Source of the DNA: Elusimicrobiaceae bacterium
GTDB taxonomy: Bacteria; Elusimicrobiota; Elusimicrobia; Elusimicrobiales; Elusimicrobiaceae
Length of the DNA: 64,000 bases
Reading direction: 5' to 3'
Assembly: GCA_016282685.1 (NCBI GenBank)
Contig: JAEELM010000025.1
Coordinates: 62,001 to 126,000 of the forward strand
The notes below the pieces were generated by a model that saw only the letters and a program-made list of their open reading frames with translations, was not told where the DNA came from and searched no databases. The translations under genes were made by a program, and so were the position numbers. Every line of letters starts with the position of its first letter. Within the stretch, counting starts at the first letter, position 1. Positions 36,282-46,782 of this stretch are shown in pieces.

Positions 36282-38357
36282 ATGAAAAAAACAATTTTCA
36301 AAACGACTTTATTTATTGTCTGTATAGGTATCATTTTATTTTTGTTGTTACCTTTCTTAGAAACTTCCACTCCTTCCCAAGAAGGAATTAATGCAAAAGC
36401 GGAACCTCAAATATTTACTTCCAACCCCTTAACCGCTTTGTTACAGAAGTTATCTCCTTTTTTCCGCTTGCGAGCACACCAGGAAAAGAAAGCTACGCTC
36501 AATCCTCGCCAAATAGATGAAATGTTTGGCAAACCAAAAGACGGGGCATTGGCATCTGCTAAGCCATTGTCACAAAATGCTTCTGCAGGGAAAGAAGCCG
36601 ATGACTCTGTTCAAAAGACAGATGCGAACGCTCCTGTTTCCAATGGAAATGATAACACGGTCTCCTCCAACTCAAAAGGAAATGAGGATTGGGTACTTAT
36701 CCGACAAACCAATCCTACCGCCAGTAAACTTGGGATGCATGAAATCAATGTAAAAGACAACCCTTATGAATCCTATATCCGTCAGCAGAAGAATGCCGCC
36801 CATATACCGGACACCACTCCAACCGCTTTTACACTAAATACACCTGCCACGTCAACTCCTTCCCGTTTTCAGAAATTAATCGATCCTGTAAAACGTTTCT
36901 TCGGATTCGGAGATGCTCAACAATTGCAGGCAGCTTCTTTCGGAGCAACAAAATCTAGTGGTGAAGGTGCCGCCCAATTAGCTTCCGTCAAAGGACTTAA
37001 TAATGGATTAATACAGGCTGGATCATCTTCCATCCGCGGCCCTATCGACCCGTCTTTGCCTTCCTTCAATCCCACTATCTCTAGCAGCGAGGAAATTGCT
37101 CCCCATGATGTGATGCAAGATATGCGGGAAGTATACTATCGTCTTCACCCTGAATCTCTCATTGAGAGTGCGGTCCAAGCATTAGCCGACGCCAAATTCC
37201 CGGGGGAACTCAGCGAAAAACAACAAGAGGAGAAAGACCAATTCATCCATGAAAATGCATCTGCTCTTTGGGCCCAATTACAAGACTTTCAGAAAAAGAG
37301 GATGGACATTTATTATGATGACATGCCCCTCCATGAAAAATTCCAAGAAGCTTGCAAGAATGAATCACTGCCTCTGTCAAATAGCTGTGAATTTCCTCCT
37401 CTGCCTAGAAAAGAAAAGCCCGAATCCTCCGTTTCTCAGGAAGAATTAAAAGCCGTCCAACAAATAAATCAGGCAAAATTTGAAAGCATCACTCAATTGC
37501 CTCTCCCACAGGTCCCTTTAACCCCTGTGTTAAGCCGCGCTTCTTCCGCTATCCAAATTTCGCCTGACAGTGAGGAAAGCCGCACAAGTCCTTTCCTTCC
37601 AGAAGCCGTTAAAGTAAATCCTATTCAGAACGCTCGAAGAGAAATTCAAATTGTTAACGATCTTTACAATTGGATGTTTGATGAAGCCAATTGTGCGGAA
37701 GAAGGAAGCGAATGTTATTATGTGGCTAACAGTGCTCAACCGGACTCCACTCTAAAAGATGTTTTCCATATGATGACAAGCTCTTTCGTGGGCGATCCTA
37801 ACAACCTCTATCCAAAAGGAGAAGCTGCTTACATTCAACATCGTTTGGATAAATTAGGGGAAAATGCATCAGAAGAAGCTCGTAAGAAAGAAGAAGAAAA
37901 AGCAAGAAGTGATTACCAAAAATACGCTCCCCCCTATTTGATTTACAACAAAGAAAACATGCAACAACACTACCAACAATTGGGGCAGGTGGTACGCTCG
38001 GGTGTCCGCGCAGATAATACTTCCTTCTTCTTTATGATGAACGGCACCCAGGCTTCTTCTTTGTCCGATACGCTAAACGGCACCGGTTTTTTGTATGATA
38101 CCGACCCGATTTTACTCCAGGAAAAAAGCAAAACCCCCGCTGAGGTCAGTAATCACTTTGTGACAAGTTCCGCGGAATTAATGCGTGACTCTTGGAACGC
38201 CGCCGCCGAAGTAATTGCTCCTTTAGCTTCCGAAGCCACTAAAATTCGCATCGGTGACGCTATTACTGAATACAATAATTTGTTAGAAGACAATGGCAAT
38301 GATGCCCTGGGAGCCTTCTTTCAAATATTGCAAAAACAAAAAGGTGACCAAAAATAA
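36282..38357 (+). CDS. large membrane-anchored protein of unknown function
   Basis: 691 residues. One N-terminal hydrophobic helix (about 5-25) should anchor or export it. Residues 30-270 are Ser/Thr/Asn/Pro-rich and look disordered; 280-350 and 460-691 are more helical and probably folded. Cysteine pairs (near 364 and 375, and near 471 and 477) could form disulfides outside the cytoplasm. No family was recognised. It has an AGGAG site and lies 52 bases after the S1C protease gene. Codon use looks like that of the neighbours. Confidence 0.7.
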   Translation: MKKTIFKTTLFIVCIGIILFLLLPFLETSTPSQEGINAKAEPQIFTSNPLTALLQKLSPFFRLRAHQEKKATLNPRQIDEMFGKPKDGALASAKPLSQNASAGKEADDSVQKTDANAPVSNGNDNTVSSNSKGNEDWVLIRQTNPTASKLGMHEINVKDNPYESYIRQQKNAAHIPDTTPTAFTLNTPATSTPSRFQKLIDPVKRFFGFGDAQQLQAASFGATKSSGEGAAQLASVKGLNNGLIQAGSSSIRGPIDPSLPSFNPTISSSEEIAPHDVMQDMREVYYRLHPESLIESAVQALADAKFPGELSEKQQEEKDQFIHENASALWAQLQDFQKKRMDIYYDDMPLHEKFQEACKNESLPLSNSCEFPPLPRKEKPESSVSQEELKAVQQINQAKFESITQLPLPQVPLTPVLSRASSAIQISPDSEESRTSPFLPEAVKVNPIQNARREIQIVNDLYNWMFDEANCAEEGSECYYVANSAQPDSTLKDVFHMMTSSFVGDPNNLYPKGEAAYIQHRLDKLGENASEEARKKEEEKARSDYQKYAPPYLIYNKENMQQHYQQLGQVVRSGVRADNTSFFFMMNGTQASSLSDTLNGTGFLYDTDPILLQEKSKTPAEVSNHFVTSSAELMRDSWNAAAEVIAPLASEATKIRIGDAITEYNNLLEDNGNDALGAFFQILQKQKGDQK

Positions 38358-38388
38358 GTTTTAATTCAATTGTAAAATGGGTATAATG

Positions 38389-38424
38389 ATAGATGGGGAG
38401 TTGTGCTTTTCCCATCTATTTTTC
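38389..38424 (+). terminator. hairpin with T-run before the lipoprotein gene
   Basis: A 9-bp stem ATAGATGGG/CCCATCTAT with a 13-base loop is followed by a T-run. It starts 31 bases after the stop of the 691-residue protein. A TATAAT lies directly before it at 38382-38387, and AGGAG of the next gene directly after it, so partial readthrough or attenuation is possible. Confidence 0.75.
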
Positions 38425-38436
38425 TAGGAGTTTTGT

Positions 38437-38979
38437 ATGAAAAAATTTGCCTATCTATTAGGTTTCTTTTTATTAATAGCTGCTGCCTGTCAAACTACTC
38501 CCTACGAGAGGGAAGATCCACATCAAGAATATGAAAAATATATCAATTCTCATATTTTTGCCGCCTGCAATAATGATGGAAAAGCCTACGCCACCTATTC
38601 TTTGGCTTATTTAAACAAACGTCCTTCCGAACGAGACCCTTATTACAAGGTAACGTTCGTTGACGGACCTTGTAAAGGAAGTTCCCGTTGGACAAAAGAC
38701 GTGATTCTTAAAACGGAACCGGCCGAAGATGGTTTTTTGGAACTAGGGCAGGTGGTTTTGCGAAATTACGAAAATCCCGCTTCCCGGGATGATAAAAGCC
38801 AAACTTCCCGCTGGCACAAAGGGGTAGTCTCCAACATTTCACGCCAAAACAAAGGCATTGTCACGCTTACTTTCCCACGGGATAGCCAAGACTTTAACGC
38901 CGCACGGGAAAGTGTATATACACATAACGTGCGCTTTATTATCGAGCCGCGCGTAAAAGATGTTCGTACGTTTTTATAA
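38437..38979 (+). CDS. lipoprotein of unknown function
   Basis: 180 residues. The signal with lipobox IAAAC gives lipidated C18. The mature part contains two further Cys that could pair and a beta-rich C-terminal half (GVVSNISRQNKGIVTLTFP). No family was recognised. An AGGAG site precedes the ATG. Eight bases separate it from the beta-barrel gene, which suggests a joint envelope function. Confidence 0.7.
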   Translation: MKKFAYLLGFFLLIAAACQTTPYEREDPHQEYEKYINSHIFAACNNDGKAYATYSLAYLNKRPSERDPYYKVTFVDGPCKGSSRWTKDVILKTEPAEDGFLELGQVVLRNYENPASRDDKSQTSRWHKGVVSNISRQNKGIVTLTFPRDSQDFNAARESVYTHNVRFIIEPRVKDVRTFL

Positions 38980-38987
38980 GGGGAAAT

Positions 38988-39743
38988 ATGAAAAAAATAT
39001 ATATAGCTAAATGGATGTTTTTATTTTTGCTGGCCATTTGCCCGGCTGTTGCTACGGCCGCCAACGGAGACCCTGTCAAAGGGGATCCTATCAATTCGGA
39101 AACGTTAATTTTAGACGTTCCGACCTCCGAAACACTGGATCGTTATCAAGCTTCTTTTCTAACACGTGCCTACGACCATGGCACAGTCATGGAAACGATT
39201 GATTTTGGTATTTATCCGCGGATTAATCTGGGGGTTAGTGTGGCCGCTCACGAATTGTTGGGCTCCTCCGATTCGGTACGGATACTCAACCCGGATTTCC
39301 AGGCCAAATGGAAAGTGTATGATGGGAACCTCTATCTGCCGGCCATTTCTATCGGTTATGACGGACGCCGATATGGTTACGGGTATAATGAACAACGCCA
39401 TTATACACGTTCTAAAAAATACTTGGACAATCGCCGCGGCGGATACGTGTCTTTTTCGCGGGAAGTTTTCATTCCGGGATTACAAATGTCAGCCGGAGCT
39501 AATTTTTCCGATTTTGAATGGAAAGAATTTTACATGTTTACCGGGGTATATTATAAAATTGCGGGACAAGCTTCCCTCTTAGCTGAATGGGACAATATCC
39601 GCAATATCCGCGACTCACGCTTTAACGCAGGAGTACGCTTTTACCTGCATCCCTCTTTGGCTTTAGACGGGGCAGTACGTCGCATTGGCCGCGGAGATGA
39701 AAGCGAACGTATTTTGCAAATTCGTTATGTAACTAATTTCTAG
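38988..39743 (+). CDS. predicted outer membrane beta-barrel protein (YjbH-like)
   Basis: 251 residues. After a signal peptide (about 1-25, ending ATAA) the sequence alternates hydrophobic and polar residues in short strands with aromatic and glycine turns (GYDGRRYGYGYNE, SAGANFSDFEW, AGVRFYLHPSLALDG) and ends in F. This is the pattern of a small outer membrane barrel. Resemblance to YjbH/YbjH exopolysaccharide-related barrels is suggestive only. It is the second gene of the lipoprotein-barrel-HAMP-tolC unit. Confidence 0.65.
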   Translation: MKKIYIAKWMFLFLLAICPAVATAANGDPVKGDPINSETLILDVPTSETLDRYQASFLTRAYDHGTVMETIDFGIYPRINLGVSVAAHELLGSSDSVRILNPDFQAKWKVYDGNLYLPAISIGYDGRRYGYGYNEQRHYTRSKKYLDNRRGGYVSFSREVFIPGLQMSAGANFSDFEWKEFYMFTGVYYKIAGQASLLAEWDNIRNIRDSRFNAGVRFYLHPSLALDGAVRRIGRGDESERILQIRYVTNF

Positions 39744-39750
39744 AGGAATT

Positions 39751-40209
39751 ATGGAAAAAACTCCACAAAAATCTTTTCAAAGAAGAACTATTTTCATTAA
39801 GAAAAAGCTACAGATACGCTACATGTTGCTTATCTGCTTGAGTGTCTTGTGTGGATTAACTATCATGACAATGGAGCTTACTCTAACCTTCAACGAACTG
39901 TTTGACAGTTATCCTATTTTGATGCAACCGCTCTACGACGCTTTCCTGCCTATCTTGTCTAATTTCTTCTATAAAATTGCAATTTATATACTATTTGTAA
40001 TTTTAATTTCTGCCATTTTGTCACATAAAATGGCAGGGCCTATTTACCGTTTTGAACAAACGTGCAAAGCTATCGCTAAAGGAGATTTTTCACAACGTGT
40101 CCACTTGCGTAAAGGAGACCAATTTGTAGAATTACAAGAGGAATTCAATAAAATGATGGACCGGGTGGAAGCTGAATTAAAAGCAAAACAAGGGGAAACA
40201 ACCAAATGA
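39751..40209 (+). CDS. stand-alone HAMP domain membrane protein
   Basis: 152 residues. Two membrane helices (about 23-45 and 70-90) with a short periplasmic loop are followed by a HAMP domain (about 90-145) with HKMAGPIYRFE and the coiled second helix. No kinase, cyclase or chemotaxis output domain follows. HAMP-only proteins are known but not understood; it may pass a signal to a separate partner. It overlaps the tolC start by ATGA. Confidence 0.78.
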   Translation: MEKTPQKSFQRRTIFIKKKLQIRYMLLICLSVLCGLTIMTMELTLTFNELFDSYPILMQPLYDAFLPILSNFFYKIAIYILFVILISAILSHKMAGPIYRFEQTCKAIAKGDFSQRVHLRKGDQFVELQEEFNKMMDRVEAELKAKQGETTK

Positions 40210-41504
40210 AGAAATCGTTGTTACTTGTTCTGGGGATTCTGTGCCTAGCCTTGCCGTCACTGGCACAAAAAGAGTATGGATTAAAATTTTCCAGCTTGGT
40301 TAGTGATAACCTTACCTTGGAAAATGCAATTCGCTTAGGGCTGGAAAACAATTCGGATTTCCTTACTGCTCAACAAGAAATCATTATTGCCGAACAAAAG
40401 GTTAACGAGGCGAAATTCCGCTATCTTCCCCAGTTCGCTTTACAGGGAACAGCCACTTGGTTTGATCTGGATTATCCTATGGTTTTGTCTGATTCTGTAG
40501 CCAACCGATTTCTTCCCGGTAAAATGCTCAATGATGATAACCGTTTCTATGCCGTGGGAGTTACAGCGACCCAATATCTATATTCCGGAGGGCGCATCCA
40601 TGGTACACTCAAGGCAGCCCGGGCTAATTTGAAGCAAGTACAAACACGTTACGAAACTGTTAAAAATCAGGTTGTCTTAACCATCAAACAAGCTTTTGCA
40701 CAATTGTTGTATGCGCAAGAAAATGCTGCATTGACCGAAGATATTTATCAAAAAGCAATTTCGTGGAATAAAAACAATACAGACGTATGGACACAAATTC
40801 AAAACCGTTCTGCTTTGGCTCAATTAGAGAATGCTTCTTCTATTGCTAAAAACGAGTTAACAAAAGCGCGCTTGGCCATGTTGGTCAGTTTGAATAAAGA
40901 ATTAAACTCGCCGTTGTCTATATCGGGCACTTTTTCCCCCACCACCCTGGAAGGGGATTTGGCTCGTTACAACTTGTGGGCTACTGAATTTAGACCCGAA
41001 TTAAAATCGGCCATCTACGAGCTGGAACTGGATAATATCTCTATCGACTTGGCTCTCTCCAAACGTTATCCGGATATCATTTTGAATGCTTCTTATGAAA
41101 AATTGGGAACGCAAAATTTGGAAGATGTAAATAAACAAATTTCTTTGGCAGTCCGCTTACCTATCCCTTATAATTTTTCTGAACAAATCACTCAAAAACG
41201 GGCAGAGCAGAAAAAAAGCGAACTTAAACGCGCCTTAATGGAAGATAACATCCGTACGCAAGTGGCCCTGAGTTTTGAAAATATGACTTTTTGGCAACAG
41301 GAAGCACTCAACCGGCAGCAAACTTACCAAGATCTGACTTCTCTGTTCGAAAAAGCTTCTAAAAATGCTTCCAAATCTGGAACAGCCCCTCTTCAAGCGG
41401 CCCTGGCTTATTTACATGCCGCCCAGGATTATTTAGTAGCTGTAAAAGAAAATCATATCGCCAAAGCGCAATTAGAGTGGGCTATTGGCAAGGATATAGA
41501 ATGA
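40206..41504 (+). CDS. tolC: TolC family outer membrane protein
   Basis: 432 residues. A signal peptide ending SLAQ is followed by the paired helical-hairpin repeats of outer membrane efflux proteins (LTLENAIRLGLENNSDFLTAQQEI near 36-60; a second repeat after about 240). It should form a periplasm-spanning exit duct. No membrane-fusion or inner-membrane pump gene lies beside it, so the partner is elsewhere or unusual. It overlaps the patatin start by ATGA. Confidence 0.88.
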   Translation: MKKSLLLVLGILCLALPSLAQKEYGLKFSSLVSDNLTLENAIRLGLENNSDFLTAQQEIIIAEQKVNEAKFRYLPQFALQGTATWFDLDYPMVLSDSVANRFLPGKMLNDDNRFYAVGVTATQYLYSGGRIHGTLKAARANLKQVQTRYETVKNQVVLTIKQAFAQLLYAQENAALTEDIYQKAISWNKNNTDVWTQIQNRSALAQLENASSIAKNELTKARLAMLVSLNKELNSPLSISGTFSPTTLEGDLARYNLWATEFRPELKSAIYELELDNISIDLALSKRYPDIILNASYEKLGTQNLEDVNKQISLAVRLPIPYNFSEQITQKRAEQKKSELKRALMEDNIRTQVALSFENMTFWQQEALNRQQTYQDLTSLFEKASKNASKSGTAPLQAALAYLHAAQDYLVAVKENHIAKAQLEWAIGKDIE

Positions 41505-42460
41505 AAATTTTTCGTCACCTGCTTTGGGCAGCCTTCTTGCTGGGACAATGCTATTTGCCAAGCAATGCAGTTTCGGCCCAAACAGATGATGCTATCTTGC
41601 GTAATTTTTTGTGGGATCGCTTTGTTTCATTACCTAAAGAAGCACGCCCGAAGGTGGGATTGGCTCTGTCGGCGGGTGGTGTACGCGGATTTGCCCATGT
41701 GGGTGTATTGGAAGTATTAAATAATGCGGCTGTGCCTATCGATATGGTAGCCGGAACTTCAATGGGATCTGTTGTCGGCGGGTTATATGCAGCCGGGCTT
41801 CCCACTCAAAAATTGTGGGAAATCAGCGAGCATATCACACTAAAAAATATTACTCCTGACCTAAATGTAATGGGACTATTCCGTTTTTTGTTTTCTAAAA
41901 AATTGCCCACCTCTGCTAATTTGGCTGATTTCTTTCAAGAACAATTAGGGGATATCCAATTTGAACAGATGCCCATTCCTTTTTCTTGCTCGGCAATGGA
42001 TGTAAAAACCGGGGAGCGTGTATTATTTAACTCCGGCCCCTTAGCCATAGCCGTTCGGGCCAGTATGAATTTGCCCGGCGTATTTGAACCTGTTCAGTAC
42101 CGCCACCGAGCCTTGGTAGATGGAGCTGTTGTAGATTATTTACCTGTAGACACGGTGCGAAAAATGGGGGCTGATTACATTATTGCTTCTGTAACCCCGC
42201 CGGATTTTTATTCTAAAACCCCACAAACCGTAGCGGCCTACCTACTGCGTGTAGGGGATGTGCGCGGGGCTGCCATGATTGAGGAGGCTTCTCAAAAGGC
42301 CAACTTCGTTATTACCAACCGCGTATTAGATACGGGGACTTTGGAATTGACCCGTTTGCATCAAGCGGGAGAGGTCGGGGTAAAAGAAACAAATTCACAT
42401 TTAGGAGAATTGCAGGAAGATCTCTTGCTTTTTGCATTGCCTTATGTACTGGAAAAATAA
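41501..42460 (+). CDS. exported patatin-like phospholipase
   Basis: 319 residues from the ATG at 41501, which overlaps the tolC stop (ATGA); the in-frame region upstream is tolC sequence. A signal peptide (about 1-27, ending VSA) sends it to the periplasm. The patatin fold shows the oxyanion motif SAGGVRG, nucleophile S87 in GTSMG and partner D207 in VDGAVVDY. It should hydrolyse phospholipids or acyl esters in the envelope. Its place between tolC and a TPR lipoprotein suggests a shared envelope task. Confidence 0.88.
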   Translation: MKIFRHLLWAAFLLGQCYLPSNAVSAQTDDAILRNFLWDRFVSLPKEARPKVGLALSAGGVRGFAHVGVLEVLNNAAVPIDMVAGTSMGSVVGGLYAAGLPTQKLWEISEHITLKNITPDLNVMGLFRFLFSKKLPTSANLADFFQEQLGDIQFEQMPIPFSCSAMDVKTGERVLFNSGPLAIAVRASMNLPGVFEPVQYRHRALVDGAVVDYLPVDTVRKMGADYIIASVTPPDFYSKTPQTVAAYLLRVGDVRGAAMIEEASQKANFVITNRVLDTGTLELTRLHQAGEVGVKETNSHLGELQEDLLLFALPYVLEK

Positions 42461-43418
42461 ATTAATAACAGTGCTGGCTTTATCCTTCATTACCGGAGGC
42501 TGTTCTTCCTTTCAAAATGGTTTCCTGGGGTTTGCCCCTGTTGGTGACAAAAAGGCTTATCTGCAAGCGCGCGAAGCCTATAGCCAGGGAAATTATCAAC
42601 AAGCCATTGAAGCCTTGACCACGTACGTTTACAAAACCCACAATGTGCGACGACGAGAAGAAAGAGCCTATCGTTTAATCGGAAGCAGTTACGAAAAATT
42701 GGGGAATTTAGACAAAGCACTGGAAATCTATTTAGAAGCCCTGGAATTTCATCCACAAAACGTTCCCCTTCTCATTGCCGCTGCTGATTTGTATCAACGC
42801 ACGGAATTGTTGGATCGTTCCCAACAATTGTATGAAAGAGCATTGAAAGAAGATGGAAATAACTTACAAGCCCTTTCCGGCTTAGCCTACAACTACTATT
42901 TGACCGGCTTTGATTCAAAAGCACGGGAATTTTATGATCGTTTCTTTGCCGTTTCACCAAATGCTTCCCCCCTTCACAGAGCGCGCTACGCACAAACATT
43001 TTTACGTCAACGCAACTATGAAAATTCTTTCATTCATATTACCCAAGCCCTGACGGAAGATAACGAAAACGCTGCCTTTTGGTTAGTAAGTGCCCGCTCT
43101 TTGCACGGATTGGGAAAAACGCAGGAAGCATTGGAACACCTTGAAACAGCTTTGCTTCTTCTGCCAGAGAATCAAGAATTTTTAGCCACAAAAGCGTTAT
43201 GGTTATATGAAGACCAACAATATGAACAGGCTTATCAAACTGCCCAACAAATTTTAGATAGTATTCCCCAAAATCAATTAGCGCAGTTGGTACAAGCCCT
43301 TTGCTTGTATAAAAAGGGAAATAAAAAAACAGCAATCGATCGCTTGAAACAAACGGAACAATTGGCTCCTACCTCGTTCGTAGGAAAAGTTGCCCATGGA
43401 ATTGTTTCGCAATTATAA
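42444..43418 (+). CDS. TPR repeat lipoprotein
   Basis: 324 residues from the ATG at 42444. Lipobox ITGGC gives lipidated C20. The rest is a run of tetratricopeptide-like helix pairs (AYSQGNYQQAIEALTTYV, EKLGNLDKALEIYLEAL, ALSGLAYNYYLTGFDSKA and others), a protein-protein scaffold. It overlaps the patatin gene by 17 bases and is the last gene of the unit, which closes at a bidirectional terminator. The binding partner is unknown. Confidence 0.83.
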   Translation: MYWKNKLITVLALSFITGGCSSFQNGFLGFAPVGDKKAYLQAREAYSQGNYQQAIEALTTYVYKTHNVRRREERAYRLIGSSYEKLGNLDKALEIYLEALEFHPQNVPLLIAAADLYQRTELLDRSQQLYERALKEDGNNLQALSGLAYNYYLTGFDSKAREFYDRFFAVSPNASPLHRARYAQTFLRQRNYENSFIHITQALTEDNENAAFWLVSARSLHGLGKTQEALEHLETALLLLPENQEFLATKALWLYEDQQYEQAYQTAQQILDSIPQNQLAQLVQALCLYKKGNKKTAIDRLKQTEQLAPTSFVGKVAHGIVSQL

Positions 43419-43443: not shown

Positions 43444-43477
43444 AAAACCGCCCCAACAGATTGTATAGGGCGGTTTT
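43444..43477. terminator. bidirectional intrinsic terminator
   Basis: A 10-bp stem AAAACCGCCC/GGGCGGTTTT with a 14-base loop lies between the TPR lipoprotein gene and the TldE-like gene. Confidence 0.9.
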
Positions 43478-43492
43478 AGTTTCATTTATTAA

Positions 43493-45097
43493 TTAAGGCT
43501 TTGGAACAAAAGATTTCCGATCGGGTTTTCTGTCACTTTCTTTTAACTCCATTTCCTCCAGCAGTAAAGCAGGGGTAATAATAGATTGTGTCCAATCAAT
43601 ATTTCGAACTATTTTTTCCGTTCCCGCAGCGCGAATATCTCTTAAAGAACGGTTACTAAGCCCGGATTCAAGCTGTAACCCGGTAACCATTTCTTTATGT
43701 CCGTCTTCGGTGTAAATTCGCTCCCAGGCCCCTTCACTATCCGGATTTAGAGAGTGAATAATATAGCAATACTCCAAATCAACGGCACGACACTCTTGAC
43801 GTAATTGCTGTTCCAATTGTTCCATGGAAAGCGGATGGCGCGCTTCCACCACTATATTGGTCAAATGCTCTTGCAATGCCCCTTTTAGGAAACGTCCGTG
43901 CCCATTACTTTTAGCCCCTTTCTTGAAGGGTCGAGAAGAAAGCGGAATTTCGCGTAGAAACCCATCTTCCACCAATGTTAATTCTTGCGTAGCAACACCT
44001 TCATCATCTATAGGAAGAAAACCAAAAAGTACTTGCCCTTGGTATGTTTTAAGTCGAGGACGATCATACACATTTACAACGTTGGAAAGCACACGTTTCC
44101 CGACTTTATTTTTGAAACTCCCGCTAATTTCTTCCTTCCCATCCACAGTAATCAATGTGCCAAAATTGGACGCATTATTCATAAATACATCTTTCCACAA
44201 ATCGGCGGCAGCAGAGGGCATCAGCAACACGGGGCCTAAAAAAGAACTCCCTTTCGGCGCGTTGTACTCTTGTTTGATTCGTTGAAGCAATTCATCTACT
44301 CTTTTTTCGGCCAATTCTTCCCAATTGTCGGCATCAGCGGAGAAATAAACCGAATCTTGAAATTTCCATTTAAACCCTGCTTTCGTACGGAAAGAAACTT
44401 CCCAATCTATATCAATATATTGCACATTATACTGAGCAAAACTTCCTAAGTTATTTAAAAGATAATGATTGACAGAAAACTTTGTGAGAGAAACGGAAAA
44501 ATCTTCCATTCCAGGAACTTCTTTCCCTTTGGCAGACAGCCGCATAACAAGTTCCTGGGCTTTTTCCTGAGAAATAGGTGTAAAAACCGGCAATTCTTCC
44601 TGATAAGTTCCCTGTTTTTGTGGCACTAAATGCGGCAAATCCGTTTCTGCGCCTTTTTGGCGTTTGTAGGATTGCTTTTTCTCATAAAAATCACTAGCCT
44701 GTAAATAAGCTTGATTCGTCAATCCCCAAAGAGACGTACGAATCCCCTCATAACTTTTGCTGGTCGTTCCCTGAATATTTTCTTCATTTTCCTTAACACC
44801 AAAACTATCATCCCGGTCGTCACCGGATGCTAATAACACCGAAGCATTTAACCATGGAGACCACTCTTGGTGGGATTGATACAAAGTTCCCAAAGAAGCA
44901 CTGGCCCCAAAATCATACTGTCTTTCTTCTAAATGATAAAGAATGTAGTACGGATTTGGACTCCCCTTCAAATGCAGCTTCTTCATGGAACGTTGCATTT
45001 CATCATGCATGGCCTTAAAATATACATTATCCGGTAATTTGGCCGCCCAAGCGAAAGAAGTTAAAAAAGCACAAAAAAGTAAAAATGTTCTCTTCAT
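43493..45097 (-). CDS. exported TldE/PmbA-like protease partner
   Basis: 534 residues. A signal peptide (about 1-18, ending AWA) is followed by a TldD/TldE type fold; the C-terminal third has the LVEDGFLREIPLSSRPF and KSNGHGR motifs of the family. The zinc-binding HExxxH is absent, which is the TldE (PmbA) pattern. In E. coli TldD and TldE form a cytosolic heterodimeric protease; here both partners appear to be exported. It overlaps the TldD-like gene upstream (ATGA). Confidence 0.78.
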   Translation of the reverse strand: MKRTFLLFCAFLTSFAWAAKLPDNVYFKAMHDEMQRSMKKLHLKGSPNPYYILYHLEERQYDFGASASLGTLYQSHQEWSPWLNASVLLASGDDRDDSFGVKENEENIQGTTSKSYEGIRTSLWGLTNQAYLQASDFYEKKQSYKRQKGAETDLPHLVPQKQGTYQEELPVFTPISQEKAQELVMRLSAKGKEVPGMEDFSVSLTKFSVNHYLLNNLGSFAQYNVQYIDIDWEVSFRTKAGFKWKFQDSVYFSADADNWEELAEKRVDELLQRIKQEYNAPKGSSFLGPVLLMPSAAADLWKDVFMNNASNFGTLITVDGKEEISGSFKNKVGKRVLSNVVNVYDRPRLKTYQGQVLFGFLPIDDEGVATQELTLVEDGFLREIPLSSRPFKKGAKSNGHGRFLKGALQEHLTNIVVEARHPLSMEQLEQQLRQECRAVDLEYCYIIHSLNPDSEGAWERIYTEDGHKEMVTGLQLESGLSNRSLRDIRAAGTEKIVRNIDWTQSIITPALLLEEMELKESDRKPDRKSFVPKP

Positions 45098-46782
45098 TTT
45101 GTTACCTCCGACATAGGGGGTGGCAAGATAGGCAATTTTTTATTTGTCTTTTGCGTTTTCTCTAATTCAAGCGAACGTAACAGCACACTGGGAGCGATAC
45201 TGGATACCGGTACCCAACCCGATTCTGCGCCACAAGTACCGTTAAATACAGCATCATCATCGGCAGCCGCTATTATTTCCTTAAAACTAACCAGCGGCGT
45301 ACCTACCATATCCACCCCTCTCACCAATTCTTTACGTCCATCCGGATAAAGACGCATGATGTATGTAGGCTCTAACTTGAATGATTGAGGAGCCAGTGTA
45401 TCGGTAATAGTAAAACCGCCGGAGAGATCTTCAATAATTACCCCATAAGGCTTACCTTGTTTTTTTATTTCTTCTAATAGCTTTTTCTCTAATTCTTCAT
45501 ACGATATGGTTTGCGAAGCAATTACACGTGTATTCCCCATACGCGCCACCGGACGCTTCTCAAATTCAGCTCGTCCATGTCCGTTGGATTGGGCAAACCC
45601 TTTAATGGGGCTGCTGCTCATTAAAAAGTTTTTCAATATTCCGTTTTCTACCAATGTAACCGGGCGAGCTTTGACTCCTTCACTATCATATTCGTAAAAT
45701 CCACGTAGAGGCTCTCCTTTGAAAGAAGGTAACGTGGCATCATCCACGATAGTAATCAAGGGGGATGTAATCATCTGCCCTACTTTATCTGTAAATGTTT
45801 TACCAAAGGAATCCTCTTTTTGGCGGTGACCTTCCACCCGATGTCCCAATACTTCATGGACAAAAACCGCCATGGCTTTGTTTTTCAAAATAGCCGGCAC
45901 AGTAGCAGGTTCGGCCTCAGGTGCCTTGATTTGTTGTTCTAGCTCTTCAAGGGCTTGCTTCACATCTTCGGCCAGTTGTTCTTCCGTAGGGAGTTTTTCT
46001 TCCTCCAGCACATCATAAATCCGACCACGGCTAAGGCTCAACCCTTCCGGTGTTCTTCCGGATACTTTAAACGACAAGCGAACATATTGAAAAGGAGTTT
46101 TCAAACGTGTACCCACGGAATCTACAAAATAATAATGCCCATACTCCTGGGAAAGGCTAAACGAACTGGATAGCACGTAAGCTTTCCCTTTCGTAAGCGC
46201 AGAAACTTTTATTAACATATCTTTGATGCGTTGAATATTAAAATCGGTAAATTGCTGCGTGTGACAATAGGTTTCTTTTGGCGGGAAAACAAAATCATGC
46301 GAATCATCCCCCCTTTTAGAAGCTGTTTGCACGTCGGTTTGCACTTCCCCGTACATTCTTTGGGCTTGTTCTGCCGCTTGTTGGGTAGCGTCCCACACTT
46401 TCAAGGTGAAGGCTTTCCCATCCGAAGTTGCTTGTGGCATATCTTGAATAGATACAGCAAAATCAGATTGCTTTTTCTTTAGCGTGCGCGTATTGTCTAA
46501 TTGGGGGCTCCCCGCACGCGCCATCACTTTTAAGTCAGAAAATTCTTGAATGTAACTAGCTCTTTCCCCTTGGTTAGAAATATAAATAGAATTTTCTTTC
46601 CCGTTTTTTAATGTATAAGATAAATAATAAATGGGCGGTTTTTGTTTTTTAAGCAGAGGGAACCCTCGTCTCATTTCAGCTGACAAAAGTTGAATGGGTT
46701 TTTCATCAGAAATAGAACAATTTGATTGTGCTATCAGATACAGCGGAGACAAAAGAAAAGTAAATAAAAGTATTTTTTTCAT
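45094..46782 (-). CDS. exported TldD-like metalloprotease
   Basis: 562 residues. A signal peptide (about 1-20) is followed by an N-terminal region unlike cytosolic TldD, then the family core with the metal-site motif H309-E310-x3-H314 (VHEVLGHRVEG). Downstream conserved stretches include LVENGILKNFLMSSSP and SNGHGR. It should be the catalytic zinc subunit of a TldD/TldE heterodimer. The signal peptide implies periplasmic or surface peptide cleavage. It starts just after an extended -10 with no leader. Confidence 0.82.
   Translation of the reverse strand: MKKILLFTFLLSPLYLIAQSNCSISDEKPIQLLSAEMRRGFPLLKKQKPPIYYLSYTLKNGKENSIYISNQGERASYIQEFSDLKVMARAGSPQLDNTRTLKKKQSDFAVSIQDMPQATSDGKAFTLKVWDATQQAAEQAQRMYGEVQTDVQTASKRGDDSHDFVFPPKETYCHTQQFTDFNIQRIKDMLIKVSALTKGKAYVLSSSFSLSQEYGHYYFVDSVGTRLKTPFQYVRLSFKVSGRTPEGLSLSRGRIYDVLEEEKLPTEEQLAEDVKQALEELEQQIKAPEAEPATVPAILKNKAMAVFVHEVLGHRVEGHRQKEDSFGKTFTDKVGQMITSPLITIVDDATLPSFKGEPLRGFYEYDSEGVKARPVTLVENGILKNFLMSSSPIKGFAQSNGHGRAEFEKRPVARMGNTRVIASQTISYEELEKKLLEEIKKQGKPYGVIIEDLSGGFTITDTLAPQSFKLEPTYIMRLYPDGRKELVRGVDMVGTPLVSFKEIIAAADDDAVFNGTCGAESGWVPVSSIAPSVLLRSLELEKTQKTNKKLPILPPPMSEVTK

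What the first reader, a model, noticed from the sequence alone, without database searches (positions are those of the whole stretch)
38437..43418. Envelope operon with orphan TolC, stand-alone HAMP, patatin and TPR lipoprotein
Six same-strand, tightly coupled genes encode a lipoprotein, an outer membrane barrel, a HAMP-only membrane protein, TolC, an exported patatin lipase and a TPR lipoprotein. No fusion protein or inner-membrane pump is present. The combination is not a standard type I or RND system and may be a lipid- or polymer-handling machine spanning the envelope.
Basis: partly seen in the sequence, partly recalled or inferred. Interest (0 to 1): 0.55.

Follow-up and report, generated by a model that had tools for sequence, protein, structure and literature searches.

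The report
Pumpless TolC channel with a phospholipase
A bacterial outer-membrane channel of the TolC type appears to have lost the tip that docks it to a drug pump and instead travels, across a whole phylum, with a predicted periplasmic lipid-cutting enzyme and a helical-repeat protein, which suggests an unrecognised way of managing outer-membrane lipids.

Summary
The six genes are real, co-directional and overlapping or nearly so. They are not one ancestral six-gene machine. The deep unit is three genes, TolC-patatin-TPR: contiguous in 19 of 20 loci from other classes of the phylum, with two extra ORFs before the TPR gene in the other. TolC and patatin are kept or lost together: 151 of 198 genomes have both, 8 patatin only, 0 TolC only, 39 neither. 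The barrel gene (12-stranded model) sits elsewhere in most other lineages and is kept in 29 genomes without the patatin match. The HAMP gene is missing in one whole family sampled, and the first lipoprotein was found only in the window's own family. The TolC is pumpless: the genome's three other TolCs each have a fusion protein and a pump, and all 54 aligned family members lack the hairpin-tip glycines of those three and have shortened hairpins. The patatin's nearest solved structure is the PlpD patatin domain, reported as periplasmic and as acting in outer-membrane lipid homeostasis (PMC11116518, passages). Best reading, inferred: a periplasmic phospholipase held at a repurposed TolC channel. 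Not demonstrated.

The parts
38437..38979 (+). gene 1, putative lipoprotein of 180 aa, no known family; peripheral member, found only in family f1
   Evidence: ORF; no Pfam/NCBIfam match; in 20 of 20 f1 loci and 0 of 40 others; lipobox AAAC read by eye
38988..39743 (+). gene 2, exported 12-stranded outer-membrane barrel; single-copy in most genomes of the phylum but usually not beside TolC outside the merged lineages
   Evidence: 183 of 198 phylum genomes; AlphaFold pLDDT 84.6; VIA Z 18.0 to FapF, 17.9 to KdgM, 16.9 to a COG4313 channel; separate locus in other classes
39751..40209 (+). gene 3, membrane protein with two hydrophobic stretches (read by eye) and a HAMP domain only
   Evidence: Pfam HAMP 3.8e-07; 111 of 117 class genomes, 0 of 4 in family f4; alignment A2
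40206..41504 (+). gene 4, TolC-family channel (core member) with shortened hairpins and no canonical tip
   Evidence: Pfam OEP 2.9e-29; TolC fold Z 24-29; tip glycine lost in 54 of 54 relatives aligned; 151 of 198 phylum genomes at E<=1e-30
41501..42460 (+). gene 5, patatin-like phospholipase with N-terminal signal sequence (core member); GTSMG Ser and DGA Asp present
   Evidence: Pfam 4.4e-31; active-site columns S87 and D207 invariant in 28 of 28; nearest PDB PlpD E 2.7e-60
42444..43418 (+). gene 6, exported TPR protein (core member), lipobox TGGC in this genome
   Evidence: Pfam TPR matches; downstream of patatin in 20 of 20 loci of other classes (19 directly)
38374..38387 (+). promoter-like element AAAATGGGTATAAT (TATAAT at 38382-38387) upstream of gene 1
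   Evidence: GGGTATAAT, mostly as AAAACGGGTATAAT, recurs by eye upstream of gene 1 in many same-genus loci; inferred, no expression data; not on the list of the consensus scan
43444..43477 (.). inverted repeat AAAACCGCCC / GGGCGGTTTT after gene 6, terminator-like between convergent genes
   Evidence: read by eye; its loop is longer than the scan allows

Best explanation
The functional unit is TolC-patatin-TPR, an old module of this phylum. A TolC-type trimer sits in the outer membrane but no longer docks to a fusion protein. The patatin is exported to the periplasm and cleaves phospholipids or lysophospholipids that reach it from the outer membrane. The TPR protein holds the lipase at the periplasmic mouth of the channel, and the channel serves as an anchor and probably as the exit for released lipid products, giving a lipid-turnover station for the outer membrane. 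The barrel, HAMP and lipoprotein genes are later neighbours in this lineage. Shown by computation: gene content, deep synteny, joint retention and loss, absence of pump partners beside it, loss of the tip, intact patatin dyad. Inferred: periplasmic place, binding of the three proteins, substrate, direction of transport.
For: Triad order in 20 of 20 patatin-centred loci of other classes (TPR directly next in 19), TolC-patatin in 6 of 6 loci of families f4, f6-f8, f13 (TPR in 5) and in 54 of 60 HAMP-centred loci. Presence: 151 both, 8 patatin only, 0 TolC only, 39 neither of 198. In this genome the three other OEPs each have a fusion protein and a pump and no spare fusion protein was recognised. 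54 of 54 family TolCs lack the tip glycine of hairpin 1 and none has a glycine at the hairpin 2 tip; hairpins are 76-98 and 68-98 residues against 102 and 98-101 in the three canonical OEPs. Fusion proteins bind the TolC tip (PMC3391258, passages). Patatin is closest to the PlpD domain, reported periplasmic with altered membrane lipids on deletion (PMC11116518, abstract and passages). MlaA in 1 of 99 and PldA in 3 of 99 genomes.
Against: No enzyme, lipid or binding assay. Gene order can be kept for expression reasons: the triad sits among amino-acid genes in other classes. Lack of MlaA and PldA is weak, since only 2 of 14 control genomes have MlaA. Co-loss counts are not phylogenetically independent and many losses are in reduced or incomplete genomes. 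The 8 patatin-only genomes may be missed TolCs or real uncoupling. Hairpin lengths rest on one alignment and three canonical sequences. Some genomes (e.g. G050, G224) lack both TolC and patatin, so the module is dispensable. No complex was modelled.
Confidence: 0.42

Rival explanations
1. The triad is an outer-membrane exit for a secreted polymer or glycolipid, like the TPR-plus-channel exits of alginate, Pel or PNAG export: TPR scaffold, TolC as channel, patatin as the periplasmic trimming hydrolase.
For: TPR scaffold, channel and hydrolase occur as neighbours; weak generic matches of the TPR protein to PrsT and PgaA models.
Against: No synthase or glycosyltransferase gene among the neighbours identified (ArgG, ArgH, LysA, DapF); the TPR matches are far below curated cut-offs; a lipase is an unusual polymer trimmer.
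Confidence: 0.15
2. The TolC is an ordinary shared outer-membrane factor, like E. coli TolC whose gene is also away from its pumps; patatin and TPR are only neighbours.
For: Orphan tolC genes are normal in E. coli (recalled); the predicted fold is a full TolC fold, Z 24-29.
Against: Each other OEP found in this genome is already paired with a fusion protein and pump; no spare fusion protein recognised by Biotin_lipoyl_2; tip signature lost in 54 of 54 relatives; phylum-wide adjacency and joint loss with patatin.
Confidence: 0.13
3. TolC and TPR export the patatin itself to the cell surface after Sec transport, as a two-step secretion system.
For: Patatin has a signal sequence and overlaps the TolC gene; joint presence.
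Against: A folded enzyme of about 300 aa would have to enter a TolC tunnel with no energised partner; PlpD-type patatin domains stay periplasmic (PMC11116518).
Confidence: 0.1
4. One reading: all six products form one machine across the envelope.
For: Genes 2-6 together in 54 of 60 HAMP-centred loci and one likely promoter before gene 1 in the genus.
Against: Genes 1, 2 and 3 have other distributions: gene 2 is present without patatin in 29 genomes and absent with patatin in 5 of 198; HAMP absent in family f4; gene 1 only in f1.
Confidence: 0.1

Closest known systems
TolC / outer-membrane factor family (PF02321), E. coli TolC and CusC/OprM
   Same: Two OEP repeats, signal peptide, full predicted fold: Z 27.4, rmsd 3.9 over 377 residues to 1ek9
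   Different: No fusion protein or pump partner beside it; the canonical hairpin tip is missing and hairpins are shorter
PlpD / FplA, patatin-Omp85 proteins (type Vd)
   Same: Patatin domain with Ser-Asp dyad, E 2.7e-60 to PlpD; an outer-membrane partner for a periplasmic patatin
   Different: Patatin is a separate exported protein of 319 aa without POTRA or barrel; the outer-membrane partner would be a TolC-type channel
Alginate, Pel and PNAG export modules (recalled: AlgK-AlgE, PelB, PgaA)
   Same: TPR protein with an outer-membrane channel and a periplasmic hydrolase
   Different: No synthase recognised nearby; channel is TolC-type; hydrolase is a lipase
TolC-YbjP of E. coli (PMC13082787, abstract and passages)
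   Same: A TolC with a dedicated outer-membrane lipoprotein partner; gene 1 or gene 6 could play that part
   Different: YbjP-bound TolC still works with AcrAB and MacAB; homology of gene 1 or 6 to YbjP was not tested

Membership tests
TolC / outer-membrane factor family | OEP domain repeats above the curated cut-off | tested here: met
   Pfam OEP 102.7 bits against cut-off 22
TolC / outer-membrane factor family | TolC fold | tested here: met
   AlphaFold pLDDT 86.4; VIA Z 24.3-29.1 to the first 26 entries listed, all OMF proteins
Tripartite efflux or type I secretion system | Fusion protein and inner-membrane transporter encoded with the channel | tested here: not met
   None in the cluster; other three OEPs of the genome have them
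Tripartite efflux or type I secretion system | Canonical hairpin tips that dock the fusion protein | tested here: not met
   Tip glycine in 3 of 3 canonical, 0 of 54 family members at both hairpins
Tripartite efflux or type I secretion system | An unpaired fusion protein elsewhere that could be shared | tested here: inconclusive
   Of 5 Biotin_lipoyl_2 matches 3 are the paired fusion proteins, the other 2 (open frames of 174 and 600 aa) were not identified; assembly 91% complete; other fusion-protein models not run genome-wide
PlpD-type patatin (type Vd) | Patatin domain with catalytic Ser and Asp | tested here: met
PlpD-type patatin (type Vd) | POTRA and 16-stranded barrel in the same protein | tested here: not met
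   Protein is 319 aa from ATG 41501; Pfam shows only Patatin
Synthase-dependent polysaccharide export | Polymerising synthase encoded with TPR and channel | tested here: inconclusive
   Identified neighbours are amino-acid and central-metabolism genes; not every neighbouring ORF was annotated
Outer-membrane lipid homeostasis enzymes | Phospholipase activity and effect on membrane lipids | not testable with these tools
   Needs bench work

The most novel reading that the evidence does not exclude
A TolC-family channel that has left efflux altogether: across one phylum it lost the pump-docking tip and became the outer-membrane anchor and exit of a periplasmic phospholipase, with a TPR adaptor in place of the fusion protein.
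Probability: 0.35. Interest if true: 0.75.

Novelty: new variant of a known kind. Interest (0 to 1): 0.55.

Why it matters
TolC proteins are known as the exit ducts of pumps and type I secretion. A phylum-wide lineage that keeps the channel, drops the docking tip and keeps a lipase instead would show that the fold can be reused without a pump. It would also offer one answer to how bacteria that mostly lack recognisable MlaA and PldA deal with surplus outer-membrane phospholipid, and it gives three named genes to delete and assay.

Tried and rejected
Six-gene machine as the ancestral unit: rejected by gene order in other families and classes and by differing presence patterns. HAMP as a dedicated partner of TolC: rejected as general, since HAMP-only relatives lie elsewhere in several families and a motif of the family also matches genomes of many other phyla (the pattern is short, some of the matches may be chance, and the ORFs were not checked). 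Gene 2 as a known channel: the model matches 12-stranded barrels of several functions (FapF, KdgM, COG4313, NanC), so no function is assigned.

Is the triad found outside the phylum? 50 genomes reached through the loci (50 of the 80 loci listed there) were searched with the patatin profile: 23 of 50 matched at E<=1e-30, and none of the 28 loci had a TolC-profile match within about 1.5 kb. Small, non-random sample; absence elsewhere is not shown.

LptD: Pfam model seen in 3 of 60 genomes, 2 over the cut-off. Too divergent or absent; not used in the argument, though PMC11257099 (passage) reports LptD absent from Endomicrobiaceae. Fisher tests ignore phylogeny and are not relied on. Literature: searches listed no paper whose title or shown abstract describes a TolC-patatin-TPR module; only PMC open-licence papers are held, and the listed papers were not read for it.

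Full report
Observation. Pfam names HAMP, OEP, Patatin and TPR; genes 1 and 2 match nothing in Pfam or NCBIfam. The window lies in a 1.42-Mb draft genome of 49 contigs, 91% complete. Family labels f1, f2 and so on are the tool's own.

Synteny inside the class. The HAMP protein has relatives in 111 of 117 genomes of the class. Eighteen-kilobase stretches (shorter at contig ends) were fetched around 60 of these hits. Genes 2-6 all occur there, on one strand, in 54 of 60 loci; the six exceptions are L063, L069, L084, L085, L092 and L093. In L073 and L087 the TolC ORF as called starts upstream of HAMP, which I read as an over-long ORF. Gene 1 was found in the 20 loci of family f1 and in none of the other 40. 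Outside f1 the usual order is DnaE, a response regulator, gene 2, one or two ORFs including phosphofructokinase, HAMP, TolC, patatin, TPR, often then DapF (names read from sequence, Pfam for some).

Synteny outside it. In families f4, f6, f7, f8 and f13, patatin-centred loci show ArgG-ArgH-TolC-patatin-TPR-LysA-DapF or parts of it: TolC-patatin 6 of 6, TPR 5 of 6 (the ArgG, ArgH and LysA names come from one locus, L133, so in the other five the upstream ORFs were not named). In 20 loci from other classes TolC precedes patatin in 20 of 20 and TPR follows in 20 of 20, in L149 after two extra ORFs. In 26 loci centred on gene 2 outside the merged lineages (L107-L118, L120-L130, L138-L140) the triad is not beside gene 2; one has only a weak TolC-like match of 31 bits on the other strand. 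Two f1 genomes (G031, G099) lack gene 2 but keep gene 1, HAMP and the triad. The six-gene cluster is thus best read as a merger of two old neighbourhoods plus one local gene.

Joint retention. Over 198 genomes of the phylum, gene 2 is found in 183 (E<=0.001), the patatin in 159 (E<=1e-50) and the TolC in 151 (E<=1e-30). TolC and patatin: 151 both, 8 patatin only, 0 TolC only, 39 neither. Gene 2 and patatin: 154 both, 29 gene 2 only, 5 patatin only, 10 neither. The thresholds differ and were chosen to favour orthologues; genomes are related and some incomplete, so these are descriptive counts. Losses of the pair include several genomes of 0.6-1.1 Mb in family f16, where gene 2 remains.

A TolC without a pump. 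Besides this TolC the genome has three OEP proteins, each directly beside a HlyD-type fusion protein and a pump: a MacB-type set, an AcrB-type set and an ABC set, of which the ATPase was named. Biotin_lipoyl_2 finds those three fusion proteins and two other proteins that were not identified. The predicted structure is a complete TolC fold (pLDDT 86.4; TM by query length 0.64-0.76 for rows 1-38; Z 27.4 to 1ek9). But in an alignment of 54 family members with the three canonical OEPs, the glycine at the tip of hairpin 1 is a gap in 54 of 54, and at hairpin 2 it is a gap in 51 and another residue in 3. Hairpin 1 spans 93-96 residues in the 28 class sequences, 94-97 in the six of families f4-f13 and 76-98 in the 20 of other classes, against 102; hairpin 2 spans 93-95, 90-96 and 68-98, against 98-101, with L151 at 98 touching the canonical range. 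That fusion proteins bind TolC at this tip is from PMC3391258 (passages). I take this as loss of pump docking; it is an inference from sequence.

The lipase. The patatin keeps the GTSMG serine and the DG(A/G) aspartate in all 28 aligned proteins. Its nearest solved relative is the PlpD patatin domain (E 2.7e-60). PlpD's domain is reported to lie in the periplasm, and plpD deletion to alter membrane lipids (PMC11116518, abstract and passages). A second, longer patatin ORF of roughly 650-900 aa occurs in many genomes of families f3-f15, but the 34 f1 genomes have one match each (E<=1e-20), so in f1 the triad member is the only close one. MlaA was found in 1 of 99 and PldA in 3 of 99 genomes; this is compatible with, not proof of, an alternative lipid route.

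The other members. Gene 2 is modelled as a 12-stranded barrel and is close to universal in the phylum. Its nearest folds (FapF, KdgM, COG4313) have different functions, so I assign none. HAMP-only relatives occur widely in the class; gene 1 is local.

Mechanism. I propose that the triad is a lipid-turnover station of the outer membrane, with patatin as the enzyme, TPR as adaptor and TolC as anchor and probable exit (confidence 0.42). The nearest rival is a polymer or glycolipid exit in the manner of alginate or PNAG export. Outside the phylum, 28 patatin loci from 23 of 50 genomes had no TolC neighbour, a small sample. Paper searches listed no description of such a module in titles or shown abstracts.

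Noticed in passing
window 43493-46782 (- strand): Two adjacent TldD/PmbA-like proteins that both start with signal-like sequences; the 562-aa one keeps an HExxxH motif (HEVLGH), the 534-aa one does not. Relatives of TldD/PmbA are usually cytoplasmic (recalled), so an exported pair is odd. It lies beside the cluster in most same-genus loci.
   Followed up: no
window 36282-38357: A 691-aa protein without any Pfam or NCBIfam match just upstream, poorly conserved even within the genus.
   Followed up: no
window 38360-38436 and same-genus loci: A recurrent GGGTATAAT (often AAAACGGGTATAAT) upstream of gene 1 in many same-genus loci, a likely promoter. In the window it is followed by a hairpin with a T-rich tail just before the gene.
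   Followed up: partly
families f3-f15, e.g. L077, L078, L081, L082: A second, longer patatin ORF (665-870 aa in these loci), divergent from DnaE, possibly PlpD-type; no second patatin match in the f1 genomes.
   Followed up: no
L170-L249: The motif of stand-alone HAMP proteins matches DNA from Omnitrophota, Nitrospira, Bdellovibrio, Deltaproteobacteria, Spirochaetes and others; this may be a wide, undescribed family.
   Followed up: no
L069, L084, L085, L092, L093: In families without the merged cluster, HAMP-only relatives lie beside other genes; in L084 a ComEC-like ORF of 677 aa (named from sequence by eye).
   Followed up: no
L147, L150, L161, L162 (family f16): In family f16, reduced genomes included, the TolC hairpins are shortened by up to about 26 (hairpin 1) and 30 (hairpin 2) residues, an extreme form of the tip loss.
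   Followed up: partly
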